Below are positions 4,956 to 18,473 of a stretch of DNA of 33,397 nucleotides, in pieces (position 1 is the stretch's first letter; every line of letters starts with the position of its first letter). The DNA comes from Candidatus Poribacteria bacterium (GTDB lineage: Bacteria; Poribacteria; WGA-4E; WGA-3G). Below the pieces are notes generated by a model. That model saw nothing but the letters and a program-made list of their open reading frames with translations, had not been told where the DNA came from and ran no database searches. A program made the position numbers and the translations under genes. The DNA lies in NCBI GenBank assembly GCA_022822275.1, contig JAJEBZ010000035.1, forward strand, positions 1-33,397, given 5' to 3'.

Positions 4956-5307
4956 ACTATAGTTTGGACAATTTTCATCTCGTCCAAGTTGAGTATTCAA
5001 TGGAACGTCTATTTTTTATGGGTTTCACATATTCGTGAAACTGGCGAAAATGCTGCACTCCAGCGGAGTGCTATGTTTATAGAAAACGGTATCCCCACAT
5101 TCTTGCACTCCAGCGGAGTGCTATGTGCGTCACCTACATACCGCTCCGCTGGAGCGGAGGTGTCGGTTTGCAATGTGGCTATAAACATATTGCTCCGCTG
5201 GAGCAAAGAGGGTTTCCGTTATGTTCGTTGGTCTTGATTTGGTAACATAGACGGTAAACCAATTTCTTATCGACTCATGTTTGGAAAAAAATTGTCCAAA
5301 CTATAGT
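4956..5307. mobile_element. MITE family A, copy 1 (352 bp)
   Basis: The element is bounded by CTATAGTTTGGACA at the left and its reverse complement TGTCCAAACTATAG at the right. It has no coding capacity of its own. Its interior carries four hairpins: GCACTCC-AGC-GGAGTGC at 5055-5071 and 5105-5121, CCGCTCC-GCT-GGAGCGG at 5141-5157 and GCTCC-GCT-GGAGC at 5192-5204, several followed or preceded by TATGTTTATAG or its complement. Copy 2 at 14734-15033 is nearly identical but lacks one hairpin unit of about 50 bp. A non-autonomous element of the IS630/Tc1 type (TA target) is possible but the target duplication is not clear. Confidence 0.85.
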
Positions 5308-14165: not shown

Positions 14166-14714
14166 ATGGAAAAATACGAACCTATATTGAAACGTCTCGA
14201 AAAAACTGCAAGGGAATATACCAATATAGCACCGGAAAACGGGCAATTTCTATCTATTCTCATCCGTGCGATTCAGGCACAACATGTCCTTGAGGTCGGG
14301 ACAAGTAATGGGTATTCAGCAATTTGGATTGCTTCCGCATTGAAACAGGCTGGTGGGCAACTGATTACGTTAGAGTCCGACCGTAAACGTGCAGCAGAGG
14401 CACAAGCACACCTCAATGAAGCAGGTCTTGCTAACATTGTTGAGATACGTGTTGGAAATGCGATTGAAGAAATCCCGAGATGTGAACCCACTTTTGACCT
14501 TGTGTTTCTTGACGCTAAGAAGAACGAATACTTGCGTTATCTTGAGTTGGTGTTGCCGAAAATCCGTTCAGGTGGCATAATTGTGGCAGATGACACCGTT
14601 ACGATGCGGAATGAAATGCTGGATTATGTGGACTTTGTGTTTAACACACCACTACTAAATTCTGTTGACATTCCTCTGGATGATGGTATAATTCTAAGTT
14701 ATAAAGCTGAATAG
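14166..14714 (+). CDS. SAM-dependent O-methyltransferase (caffeoyl-CoA type family)
   Basis: Counting from ATG 14166 the protein has 182 residues. It shows the class I SAM fold of the O-methyltransferase family 3: LEVGTSNGYSA (42-52, SAM loop), the acidic end of strand 2 (ITLESD, 67-72), DLVFLDAKK (111-119, metal/substrate Asp region) and VADD (140-143). These enzymes methylate hydroxyl groups of small molecules, usually with a divalent metal, in the cytoplasm; the substrate here is unknown. An in-frame ATG at 14115 would add 17 residues, but those codons are the terminator stem and U-tract, so the later ATG is preferred. The ribosome site (GTGATGG) is weak. Confidence 0.82.
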   Translation: MEKYEPILKRLEKTAREYTNIAPENGQFLSILIRAIQAQHVLEVGTSNGYSAIWIASALKQAGGQLITLESDRKRAAEAQAHLNEAGLANIVEIRVGNAIEEIPRCEPTFDLVFLDAKKNEYLRYLELVLPKIRSGGIIVADDTVTMRNEMLDYVDFVFNTPLLNSVDIPLDDGIILSYKAE

Positions 14715-14733
14715 AAAAAATGTGTTAAATTCT

Positions 14734-15033
14734 ACTATAGTTTGGACAGTTTTCATCTCGTCCAAGTTGAGTATTCAACGGAACGTCTATTTTCTATGGC
14801 GTTTGCATATTCGTGAAACTGGAGAAAATGCTGCACTCCAGCGGAGTGCTATGTGCGGCACCTACATACCGCTCCGCTGGAGCGGAGGTGTCGGTTGACA
14901 ATGTGACTATAAACATATTGCTCCGCTGGAGCAAAGAGGGTTTCCGTTATGTTCGTTGTGTCTTGATTTGGTAACATAGACGGTAAACCAATTTCTTATC
15001 AACTCATGTTTGGAAAAAAATGTCCAAACTATA
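14734..15033. mobile_element. MITE family A, copy 2 (300 bp)
   Basis: Left end CTATAGTTTGGACA and right end TGTCCAAACTATA match copy 1 at 4956-5307, and the interiors are nearly identical. This copy has a single GCACTCC-AGC-GGAGTGC hairpin where copy 1 has two. AAATTC occurs close to both ends outside the element but is offset, so a target duplication is uncertain. The right end lies inside the open frame of the aminotransferase gene. Confidence 0.85.
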
Positions 15034-16269
15034 ATAAATTCAAAAAATACAAATAAAAGTAAAAGGACATTCAATATCTCACTTAAAACCAAAATCTCAA
15101 ATAAATCCACCCGTTTCACCGAATCTGTCATACGTGGTATGACGCAAATGTGTCTGCGTTACAATGCGATTAACCTCTCACAAGGCACACCGGCATACCA
15201 ACCCCCAGATGAGGTAAAAGCAGCAGCCATCAAAGCAATTCAAGAGGGATACAATCAGTATAGCATAACGTGGGGCGCACCCGAGTTTCGCGAAGCAATC
15301 GCCCATAAAATGAACACCTTTAACGGAATTCCTACGGATGCTGCTAAGAATGTCACGGTGACTTGTGGTTCAACGGAAGGCATGTTGTCCGCACTGCTTG
15401 CGATCATCAATCCAGGGGACGAGGTCATCATCTTTGAACCCTTTTATGAAAACTACGGACCGGATACAATTATCTCAGGCGCAAAACCTGTATATGTAGC
15501 ACTTCAGGAGACACATACTGATGATGGTGACATGCGGTTTACCTATGACCGAAATGAACTAAAAGAAGCGTTTTCTTCTAAGACGAAAGCGATTATCTTG
15601 AACACACCCAATAATCCACTTGGGAAGGTTTTTACGCTTGACGAACTCTATGAGATTGCCGACCTTTGCTGTGCGTATGACTGCATCGCTGTTACCGATG
15701 AGATATATGAGCACATGATTTATGACGGTATACCGCATATTAGCATCGGAGCTCTACCGCAAATGCAAAATCGGACAATTACGGTGTCCGGACTGAGCAA
15801 GACATATTCCATGACTGGTTGGCGTTTAGGATATGTCGTTGCACCAGAAGTCTTGACAGATGCTATCCGCAAAATGCATGATTTTCTAACGGTGGGGGCA
15901 CCGCATCCATTGCAACGAGCAGGGGTCGCTGCCTTAAACTTACCACAACAATACTACACAGACTTGATTGCAAAATATGACAATAATCGGCAAATGCTTG
16001 TTAAGATACTTACAGATGCGGGATTCTGCTGCTATCCCCCTGAAGGGGCATACTACATTATGACCGACATATCAGATTTCGGGTTTGAAGATGACACTAC
16101 GTTTGGTCACTGGTTGGTAAAAGAAATTGGTGTTGGTGGCGTTCCGGGGTCCAGTTTCTACAGCCGCCCCGAACTCGGTAGAACAAAGTTCCGTTTTATG
16201 TTCAGCATGGCTAATGATGTCTTAAATGAAGCAGGTGAACGGTTAATGAAAATATATGCTAAAATATAA
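15010..16269 (+). CDS. Pyridoxal-phosphate-dependent class I/II aminotransferase
   Basis: The frame gives 419 residues from a TTG at 15010. Fold-type I motifs are NTPNNPLGKVF (199-208 region), Asp230 (VTDEIYEH, pyridine nitrogen), the Schiff-base Lys264 in SGLSKTYSMTGWRLGY, Arg272, and a C-terminal Arg in LGRTKFRFMF that should bind the substrate carboxylate. The best family match is the aspartate/kynurenine/methionine aminotransferase group; the amino acid used is not decided. The start is doubtful: the conserved N-terminus (ISNKSTRFTESVIRGMTQ, 29-46) has no ATG or GTG before it. TTG 15010 lies in the end of a MITE, without a ribosome site; AGGA at 15064-15067 precedes an in-frame ATC at 15076. 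The next ATG (15138) would cut conserved residues. Confidence 0.85.
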   Translation: MEKNVQTIINSKNTNKSKRTFNISLKTKISNKSTRFTESVIRGMTQMCLRYNAINLSQGTPAYQPPDEVKAAAIKAIQEGYNQYSITWGAPEFREAIAHKMNTFNGIPTDAAKNVTVTCGSTEGMLSALLAIINPGDEVIIFEPFYENYGPDTIISGAKPVYVALQETHTDDGDMRFTYDRNELKEAFSSKTKAIILNTPNNPLGKVFTLDELYEIADLCCAYDCIAVTDEIYEHMIYDGIPHISIGALPQMQNRTITVSGLSKTYSMTGWRLGYVVAPEVLTDAIRKMHDFLTVGAPHPLQRAGVAALNLPQQYYTDLIAKYDNNRQMLVKILTDAGFCCYPPEGAYYIMTDISDFGFEDDTTFGHWLVKEIGVGGVPGSSFYSRPELGRTKFRFMFSMANDVLNEAGERLMKIYAKI

Positions 16270-16383: not shown

Positions 16384-16590
16384 ATGGACACTATCCTTGA
16401 AAATGAAACCCGTGAAATCTATAAAGCAGAAATCATGACACTTATTCAGCAGGATGAAAAGTATATCACGCTTGGTCCTGAAGAACTTGATGCAATCGTC
16501 AACGCATTTGAGTTTACTTTAGCAAACGGACGCGAGAAAGTGAGAGCACAAATGCTATACGATCTCATTCAAGAGAAAAGCGATGAATAG
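16384..16590 (+). CDS. Small acidic protein coupled to a Rad50-like ATPase
   Basis: This 68-residue protein is predicted all-helical and acidic (MDTILENETREIYKAEIMTL at its start). It has an AGAGGAAA ribosome site 5-10 nt before the ATG. Its stop is 2 bp ahead of the start of the Rad50-like gene, so the two are almost certainly co-translated. No family was recognised. The coupling suggests an accessory or regulatory subunit of the ATPase, taking the place where an SbcD/Mre11 nuclease gene would normally be; that role is inference. Confidence 0.65.
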   Translation: MDTILENETREIYKAEIMTLIQQDEKYITLGPEELDAIVNAFEFTLANGREKVRAQMLYDLIQEKSDE

Positions 16591-16592
16591 TT

Positions 16593-18473
16593 ATGCAATT
16601 AGAACGGATTCGCCTAAAGACATTCGGTTGTTTCAAACAGCAAGATTTTGACCTGTCTGATGGTATCAATCTTATTTTCGGTCCCAATTTCAGCGGTAAA
16701 AGTACACTTGTCAACGCTATTTTTTTCACATTAACAGGGAAACCGATAGTGCCGCGGGTGGATGCTGCATCCATAAAAAGCGCAAGGTCAAATAGTGGAA
16801 CTGCCGGGCTCCAGTTCGTAGTAGATGACGAACGGTACATGCTTTTCCGCGGGACACGGAAACAATTCCAACTCCGCCAAGAAAAAGATGGACAATGGCA
16901 TATCATTTTTAATGAGCCCCGTGTCACGGTCGTTGAAAAAACGCTAAAAGAACGTTTTGGTATTTCACATGATCGCTTAGCATTGACAGCATTTCTTCGC
17001 GAAGGAGAGATATTTGAGTTCCTTGCACGACAACCCGCAACCCGCCGCGATATCCTATATGCCCTCCTCGGCATTGACAGATTGATAGATGTTCGGGAGC
17101 GGTTCATAGATGCACGCCGTCTTGCAAAACGTGAAAGAAACCGGATTCAGTCACATCAAAATAGCCTACGCTACGGTGCACAGAATGCAAACAATACAGA
17201 AATTGAAAAAATAGAAGCAAAGATAAAGGAATTAGAAGCTATATATAGTGCTGAAACCGGTGATGCAGAATTGATCTCTGAATGGGTGCGAAACTGGAAA
17301 CAAGCACAGAAACAATTAGATACACTAACCCAAGAACAGAAAGAAACGTTGAGCGGATTTAACGACATTAAACACCTCCGTGAAATGCTGTCTACAATAG
17401 AAAAGGCAGTTCAAGAAGCCATAGGATTAGAGGCAGAACGGGATGAACTCGTTAGCAAAGTTGGAAGTCTTGATACGCAAGTTAGCACACTAAAAAATGT
17501 CACCAAAGCACTTGAAACGTTACTTGAGAGTGATGATAGACACTGTCCAACATGTCATCAGGAAGTTGAACGCGATGTTGTTGAGAAGATCATTGACGAT
17601 AACGAGAACGAAAAAGCACAACTAACAACCGAATTGAAAACAGAGAAAAAAGCACTCAAAGAAATTACCGATAATCTAAAAAGTAGAAAAGAATTGGAGC
17701 AACGGCTACAGATTTTGCAGTCAAATGTGACTCGATTTGAACAACTTGTTGAAGAAATAAATAAAACCAACGAAGAGATTATCACGCTAACTAAGCGTTT
17801 AAGTGAAAAGGGTGTACAAGTTGATTCAGAAACAGCAGACACTACTTCACAATCTGCGGAAGCAGTTAACGCGAATTTGGATAAGAGTCAGTTGAAAGCA
17901 CAAATTGAAAGTGAACGAAAAAAACTTGACAACCTCAAACAAAAAGAAGCTGTAAAATTGGATAGACTCAATCAACTTCAGAAGGTTAATGCGGAAGCGG
18001 AACAGGTGGAAAAGACAACACTCTGTTTGGAACTCGCTTGTGCAGGTGTTGAAAAGACAATTGATACGCTGCAACGACAAATACTGAAACCTGCAGAAAA
18101 TGAACTCCAAAGTTGGCTTGAAAAAATGAACCTATTTACAGAATCAAGTATTGACTTACAACGACAACATCTGCTGCCGTCACTTAAGATTGATGGTGAA
18201 GATCGGAGTTTGTTGCTTTTGAGTGGTAGCGAAAAAATGTTCCTCTATCTATGTTTCAAAGTTACGCTTGCAAAAATATTGGGAAATACAGGTTTTTTTG
18301 TTTTTGACGATCCCACGCTGCATTTAGATGGTGAACGAAAGACACTGATGGTGAATTTTATTCAACAACTTGCCGAAGATCATCAAGTTATTGTAACGAG
18401 TTATGATGAGGATGTCCGCGCCGGATTAGAAGGTGCAAACTTGATTGAAATGAAACGGGATGTACTGGAGTAG
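16593..18473 (+). CDS. Compact Rad50/SbcC-like ATPase with zinc hook
   Basis: The 626-residue protein has the split ABC ATPase of the SMC/Rad50 family: Walker A GPNFSGKST (30-38), signature LSGSEK (543-548) and Walker B FFVFDDP (568-574) followed by D-loop LHLD. Between them are two coiled-coil arms (about 170-310 and 330-510) around a CPTC zinc hook (318-321), which dimerises such proteins. The switch histidine is replaced by Ser-Tyr (VTSYDED, 601-607). At 626 residues it is shorter than bacterial SbcC (about 1000) and resembles compact archaeal-type Rad50. Family members act with Mre11/SbcD nucleases on DNA ends. No nuclease gene is adjacent; only the 68-residue protein precedes it, 2 bp upstream. 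Confidence 0.85.
   Translation: MQLERIRLKTFGCFKQQDFDLSDGINLIFGPNFSGKSTLVNAIFFTLTGKPIVPRVDAASIKSARSNSGTAGLQFVVDDERYMLFRGTRKQFQLRQEKDGQWHIIFNEPRVTVVEKTLKERFGISHDRLALTAFLREGEIFEFLARQPATRRDILYALLGIDRLIDVRERFIDARRLAKRERNRIQSHQNSLRYGAQNANNTEIEKIEAKIKELEAIYSAETGDAELISEWVRNWKQAQKQLDTLTQEQKETLSGFNDIKHLREMLSTIEKAVQEAIGLEAERDELVSKVGSLDTQVSTLKNVTKALETLLESDDRHCPTCHQEVERDVVEKIIDDNENEKAQLTTELKTEKKALKEITDNLKSRKELEQRLQILQSNVTRFEQLVEEINKTNEEIITLTKRLSEKGVQVDSETADTTSQSAEAVNANLDKSQLKAQIESERKKLDNLKQKEAVKLDRLNQLQKVNAEAEQVEKTTLCLELACAGVEKTIDTLQRQILKPAENELQSWLEKMNLFTESSIDLQRQHLLPSLKIDGEDRSLLLLSGSEKMFLYLCFKVTLAKILGNTGFFVFDDPTLHLDGERKTLMVNFIQQLAEDHQVIVTSYDEDVRAGLEGANLIEMKRDVLE

What the first reader, a model, noticed from the sequence alone, without database searches (positions are those of the whole stretch)
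14734..15140. MITE end fused to an aminotransferase gene and supplying its only standard start codon
The conserved aminotransferase N-terminus begins near 15094, but no ATG or GTG is in frame before it; the only conventional start is TTG 15010, which lies inside the right inverted repeat of MITE A copy 2. Either the element replaced the native start and promoter, or an unusual start (ATC 15076 behind AGGA) is used, or the gene is being silenced.
Basis: seen in the sequence. Interest (0 to 1): 0.62.

Follow-up and report, generated by a model that had tools for sequence, protein, structure and literature searches.

The report
Conserved AUU/AUC start codon in aminotransferase
A small mobile element sits in front of an aminotransferase gene, but the gene's real start is most likely an unusual ATC codon just downstream, and related poribacteria keep the same kind of odd start (usually ATT) without the element, so a rare, probably slow way of starting translation has been conserved here while gene-finding programs overlook it.

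Summary
In detail: MITE copy 2 occupies about 14734-15034, and upstream of the aminotransferase no ATG or GTG is in frame; only TTG 15010, inside the element. The idea that the MITE supplied the start is not supported. In the sister species G007 the MITE is absent, yet the same leader 'AAAAGGACATTCAAT' precedes the same ATC. Among 53 distinct copies of the gene in the family, 31 have ATT and 2 ATC at this codon, 18 have ATG, and 2 are fused to an upstream gene. All 33 ATT/ATC copies carry a Shine-Dalgarno (SD) sequence; 17 of 18 ATG copies have a weak one or none. In 21 of the 33 no ATG/GTG/TTG is in frame upstream at all, yet purifying selection begins at this codon (pN/pS 0.22 after it, 1.17 before it). 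The states swapped 4-6 times on the tree. infC in the same genomes also starts at AUA, and the 16S anti-SD tail is normal. Most likely start: AUC 15076, a weak IF3-sensitive codon helped by an SD; the MITE is a structured insert in the leader. This is a new member of the infC/pcnB/sigR class of non-canonical starts. No expression data were available.

The parts
14166..14714 (+). O-methyltransferase gene (Methyltransf_3), the conserved upstream neighbour
   Evidence: Pfam PF01596 E=1e-26; upstream of the aminotransferase in most family members, usually 20-60 nt away
14665..14692 (+). Promoter-like site TTGACA-16-TATAAT (12/12, TGN extended -10) inside the 3' end of the methyltransferase gene; candidate native promoter of the aminotransferase
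   Evidence: same 12/12 site in G007 (L061), L097 and L110, degenerate in the others; consensus match only
14726..14732 (+). Left copy of the target duplication TAAATTC
14734..15034 (+). MITE copy 2: terminal repeats, no gene of its own, folds as one long hairpin (-107 kcal/mol, z = -5.1)
15010..15012 (+). TTG in the right end of the MITE: the only conventional in-frame start, judged incidental
   Evidence: absent from G007 and from all other orthologues
15035..15041 (+). Right copy of the target duplication TAAATTC
15061..15067 (+). Shine-Dalgarno sequence AAAAGGA, 8 nt before the ATC
   Evidence: duplex energy with the 16S tail -5.9 kcal/mol; an SD is present in all 33 ATT/ATC orthologues
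15076..15078 (+). Proposed start codon ATC (AUC)
   Evidence: same codon is ATC in G007, ATT in 31, ATG in 18 orthologues; selection on the protein begins here
15076..16269 (+). Class I/II PLP aminotransferase (kynurenine/glutamine/methionine aminotransferase-like), 397 codons plus stop
   Evidence: PF00155 E=3e-65; closest solved relatives kynurenine aminotransferase and E. coli YbdL
15139..15141 (+). First internal ATG (codon 22); a caller limited to ATG/GTG/TTG would start here in G007, judged not the start
   Evidence: no SD (median -0.9 kcal/mol in 33 orthologues); the 20 codons before it are under purifying selection
16384..16590 (+). 68-codon gene, conserved downstream neighbour, no Pfam match
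16593..18473 (+). SbcC/Rad50-like AAA ATPase gene, conserved downstream neighbour

Best explanation
The aminotransferase starts at ATC 15076, read by the initiator tRNA as Met and recruited by the SD AAAAGGA 8 nt upstream. Shown by comparison: this position is a conserved start site in the family, filled either by AUU/AUC with an SD or by AUG usually without one. Inferred: AUU/AUC initiates poorly and is discriminated against by IF3, so the gene has a low, IF3-sensitive output, as in infC, pcnB and sigR. Also inferred: the MITE inserted (target duplication TAAATTC) into the roughly 50-nt gap between methyltransferase and aminotransferase, downstream of the native promoter and upstream of the SD. 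It would then be carried in the mRNA leader as a closed hairpin and supply neither start nor SD; TTG 15010 is incidental.
For: G007 lacks the MITE but has the identical 'aaaaggacattcaat ATC TCA CTT'. Of 53 distinct family CDSs, 31 have ATT, 2 ATC, 18 ATG at the homologous codon, and 2 are fusions. SD energy is -7.2 on average for the 33 ATT/ATC against -1.2 for the 18 ATG. 21 of the 33 have no in-frame ATG/GTG/TTG upstream; pN/pS in those is 1.17 in the 8 codons upstream, 0.22 in codons 2-9, 0.15 in codons 2-21. Internal ATG22 has no SD. The state changed 4-6 times on the tree. The 16S tail is canonical CCTCCTTTCT and infC starts at AUA in the genomes read. Two scans of 344-367 conserved genes from three genomes left only this gene as a convincing non-canonical start. 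Precedents: PMC5472188 (sigR, infC), PMC13009471 (cvfC1, ccpN, infC).
Against: No ribosome profiling, N-terminal peptide or reporter data. The window itself has an in-frame TTG, and 12 of the 33 ATT/ATC genes have some in-frame conventional start upstream (in four an ATG three codons up, overlapping the SD). The phylogenetic test of SD against start codon has only about 4 independent pairs on well-supported branches and is not significant by itself (p about 0.25). IF3 control is untested.
Confidence: 0.85

Rival explanations
1. In this strain the MITE's TTG 15010 has become the working start, adding 22 residues to the protein.
For: TTG is a conventional start, is in frame, and the 22 codons are open.
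Against: No SD in front of it (GTTTGG at the end of the MITE); the original SD and ATC are intact downstream and identical to G007; no relative has the extension.
Confidence: 0.05
2. Translation starts at the internal ATG 15139 (codon 22) and the preceding 21 codons are leader.
For: First conventional ATG in all 33 ATT/ATC orthologues; it is what a conventional ORF caller lists for G007.
Against: Codons 2-21 evolve as protein (pN/pS 0.15); no SD precedes ATG22; orthologues with ATG start at codon 1; in related aminotransferases the match begins before this point (profile from residue 31 of the TTG form).
Confidence: 0.04
3. The MITE replaced promoter and start, or silences the gene.
For: It lies between the candidate promoter and the SD and folds into a strong hairpin.
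Against: ORF intact; promoter-like site upstream retained; no terminator-like site on the + strand within the MITE.
Confidence: 0.06

Closest known systems
infC (IF3) AUU/AUC/AUA start
   Same: Non-canonical AUN start behind an SD, widely conserved; poribacterial infC itself starts at AUA.
   Different: The product here is a metabolic enzyme, not IF3, so self-regulation cannot be the reason; relatives switch to AUG.
E. coli pcnB AUU start (Binns and Masters 2002, cited in PMC13009471 and PMC9410913)
   Same: A non-IF3 gene whose expression is held low by an AUU start.
   Different: pcnB encodes poly(A) polymerase; here the codon alternates with AUG across a bacterial family.
Streptomyces sigR GTC start (PMC5472188)
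   Same: Conserved non-canonical start with a conserved SD, missed by annotation; IF3 repression shown there.
   Different: GTC/GTT rather than ATT/ATC; a sigma factor; IF3 effect untested here.
S. aureus cvfC1 (AUU) and ccpN (AUA) (PMC13009471)
   Same: Conserved non-canonical starts with SD; about 10% of AUG output measured for them.
   Different: Those sites have extended SDs; here the SD is ordinary and is lost in most relatives that have AUG.

Membership tests
Genes with a conserved non-canonical (AUU/AUC/AUA) start | No usable ATG/GTG/TTG in frame upstream of the conserved protein | tested here: met
   21 of 33 ATT/ATC orthologues have none, including sister G007; the window has only the MITE's TTG
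Genes with a conserved non-canonical (AUU/AUC/AUA) start | Coding selection begins at the codon | tested here: met
   pN/pS 1.17 upstream against 0.22 in codons 2-9
Genes with a conserved non-canonical (AUU/AUC/AUA) start | SD at proper spacing | tested here: met
   All 33 have one, mostly GAGG/AAGG 7-9 nt upstream
Genes with a conserved non-canonical (AUU/AUC/AUA) start | Reduced, IF3-sensitive initiation with fMet at that codon | not testable with these tools
   No expression data; organisms known here only as MAGs
infC (IF3) autoregulated gene | Product is IF3 | tested here: not met
   Product is an aminotransferase, PF00155
MITE (non-autonomous inverted-repeat element) | Short, multicopy, terminal inverted repeats, no transposase gene | tested here: met
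   About 300-355 nt, about 7 full copies, 13-15 bp terminal repeats
MITE (non-autonomous inverted-repeat element) | Target-site duplication of fixed length | tested here: met
   7-8 bp in copies 1, 2 and L008, with 1 mismatch in some other copies; the duplications show that TA alone is not the target
MITE (non-autonomous inverted-repeat element) | A transposase with matching ends elsewhere in the genome | not tested
   Autonomous partner not sought

The most novel reading that the evidence does not exclude
Within one uncultured bacterial family, a metabolic gene is held at a set initiation rate by two interchangeable solutions, strong SD with a weak AUU/AUC codon or AUG with little or no SD, swapped several times in evolution, and the AUU form links amino-acid metabolism to IF3 level.
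Probability: 0.3. Interest if true: 0.72.

Novelty: new member of a known kind. Interest (0 to 1): 0.52.

Why it matters
Few bacterial genes outside infC are known to start at AUU or AUC, and gene callers that accept only ATG/GTG/TTG miss them. Here such a start is conserved across dozens of poribacterial genomes in an ordinary metabolic gene, and relatives that carry AUG at the same position form a ready set of natural controls. That makes a general question testable with simple reporters: whether SD strength and start-codon strength compensate each other, and whether a gene other than infC is wired to IF3. It also warns against reading a mobile element as the source of a start codon without checking relatives.

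Tried and rejected
MITE as source of start or promoter: rejected by the element-free sister species. Sequencing error ATG to ATC: rejected by independent assemblies, including complete chromosomes. General relaxed start usage in these genomes: two scans of conserved genes in about 2 Mb of three genomes left no other convincing case; other hits had an ATG close by or an in-frame TGA, and these scans miss non-canonical starts that have an ATG/GTG/TTG close by. The first version of that scan was swamped by antisense ORFs. Leaderless AUG messages as the reason for missing SDs in ATG relatives: no consistent -10 box at the right distance, unresolved. Coupling to the upstream methyltransferase as the reason for AUU: both states occur close to it, and AUU persists where about 1.2 kb has been inserted between the genes (L062) or where no methyltransferase was found in the stretch read (L069, L077, L079). 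Altered ribosome: 16S tail is normal.

Full report
What was checked. The window is contig C240 of a 4.53 Mb, 320-contig MAG; the named relatives are Candidatus Poribacteria MAGs. The element reported at 14734 onward is a real MITE-like repeat: about seven full-length copies and many fragments in the same genome, terminal repeats TATAGTTTGGACA/TGTCCAAACTATA, and target duplications of 7-8 bp (TAAATTC for this copy, TGTTTTT for the copy at 4956-5305, TAATACAT for L008). Upstream of the aminotransferase the open frame has 32 codons with a single conventional start, TTG 15010, inside the element.

Orthologues without the element. The nearest relative, G007 (93% protein identity), has no MITE between methyltransferase and aminotransferase. 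Its leader reads 'AAAAGGACATTCAAT ATC TCA CTT', identical in those 24 bases to the window, and no ATG, GTG or TTG is in frame upstream. Removing the MITE and one target repeat from the window gives a spacer that aligns with that of G007. The ATC and its SD thus existed without the element, and the element landed upstream of both.

The codon across the family. I collected orthologues from two collections and removed identical coding sequences, leaving 59 CDSs, of which 53 belong to the inner clade of the tree. At the homologous codon 31 have ATT, 2 ATC and 18 ATG; 2 are in-frame fusions to what looks like the first codons of the neighbouring methyltransferase gene. Duplex energy between the 22 nt before the start and the 16S tail averages -7.2 kcal/mol for the ATT/ATC genes (all at or below -3.8) and -1.2 for the ATG genes, where only G020 (L071) has a clear SD. 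These rows are related, so the Mann-Whitney value (4e-8) overstates the case. On a maximum-likelihood tree built without the first 21 codons the state changes about 6 times (at least 4 on well-supported branches), and in about 4 independent pairs the SD usually goes with ATT/ATC, which is too few for significance.

Is the codon really the start? In 21 of the 33 ATT/ATC genes there is no in-frame ATG, GTG or TTG between the upstream stop and codon 22. In these 21, nonsynonymous change relative to synonymous change is 1.17 in the eight codons upstream of the ATT/ATC, 0.22 in codons 2-9 and 0.15 in codons 2-21. Protein-level selection therefore begins at this codon. The first internal ATG (codon 22) has no SD (median -0.9 kcal/mol). 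The leader consensus is A-rich, AGG(A/G) followed by a spacer close to TATTCAAA and then ATT.

How unusual is it? I fetched 0.8 Mb of G010, 0.8 Mb of G070 and 0.4 Mb of G072, paired orthologous ORFs, and looked for conserved protein sequence upstream of the first conventional start. In 367 genes the only convincing non-canonical start was this gene; the other strong hit was a probable in-frame TGA. A second scan scoring all near-cognate codons in 344 genes gave the same answer. Both scans have limited sensitivity when a conventional start lies nearby. Of 253 genes with confident starts, 218 use ATG, 26 GTG, 9 TTG, and about two thirds have a clear SD. The 16S tail is the standard CCTCCTTTCT in six genomes, so the ribosome's SD pairing is normal. 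infC in the genomes read starts at ATA behind GGGGTG or GGAGGTG, which suggests that IF3 autoregulation operates in these bacteria.

Mechanism. Shown by comparison: initiation site at 15076, conserved, usually AUU. Inferred from established work: AUU/AUC pairs imperfectly with the initiator tRNA, gives low output, and is disfavoured by IF3 (infC and sigR: PMC5472188; S. aureus cvfC1 and ccpN at about 10% of AUG: PMC13009471). The SD probably compensates for the weak codon, and relatives with AUG have mostly lost it. A perfect promoter-like site lies at 14665-14692 in the end of the methyltransferase gene and is shared with G007. If that is the promoter, the MITE is transcribed as a roughly 300-nt closed hairpin (-107 kcal/mol, z -5.1) in the leader, about 27 nt upstream of the SD. 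Whether it changes expression is unknown.

Context. The gene is a fold-type I aminotransferase closest to kynurenine/glutamine aminotransferases and E. coli YbdL among solved structures. It lies in a conserved cluster: O-methyltransferase, aminotransferase, a 68-codon gene and an SbcC/Rad50-like ATPase. The spacer before it is often enlarged: about 0.96-1.4 kb in L062, L063, L065, L066, L067, L072 and L075, 0.16-0.4 kb in L070, L090, L094 and L113; the SD-ATT module persists in L062, L070, L090, L094 and L113.

Verdict. The finding as titled is misleading: the MITE is incidental. What it pointed to is a real, conserved non-canonical start codon, a new member of a small known class, with an unusual alternation between AUU plus SD and AUG with little SD. 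Not shown: protein N-terminus, expression level, IF3 dependence.

Noticed in passing
G010 C1 (ORF G010|-|439749 of segment 500001-1300000) and G070 C1 near 125 kb: Candidate selenoprotein: 'YFRNS-TGA-(N/T)SCKKVQEFLD...' with an in-frame TGA at the first position of a UxxC motif in both genomes; weak ArsC/glutaredoxin match.
   Followed up: partly
L138-L167, infC: infC starts at a conserved ATA in the genomes read (TTGGGGGTGTGAAA ATA CAC TAT), with no conventional start possible in most because a TGA lies immediately upstream.
   Followed up: yes
L080, L133, L134: What look like the first 13 codons of the methyltransferase gene (MQKYQPLLKRLEKTAK) are fused in frame to the aminotransferase, apparently by deletion, giving it an ATG start.
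   Followed up: partly
window:14665-14692: Perfect sigma-70-like promoter (TTGACA-16-TATAAT, extended -10) inside the coding end of the methyltransferase gene, conserved in a few relatives only.
   Followed up: partly
L062, L066, L072, L070, L090, L094, L113 upstream of the aminotransferase: The short gap between methyltransferase and aminotransferase is a frequent insertion site: ORFs of about 260 codons (in L066 and L072 related at the N-terminus) or short elements of 158-395 nt.
   Followed up: partly
window:25329-28719: Three tandem WD40-repeat lipoprotein-like genes, apparently duplicated from one another.
   Followed up: no
18 ATG orthologues, for example L084, L100, L097: Most ATG-type genes have no SD and a pyrimidine-rich leader 20-30 nt after the methyltransferase stop; how they recruit ribosomes is unexplained.
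   Followed up: partly
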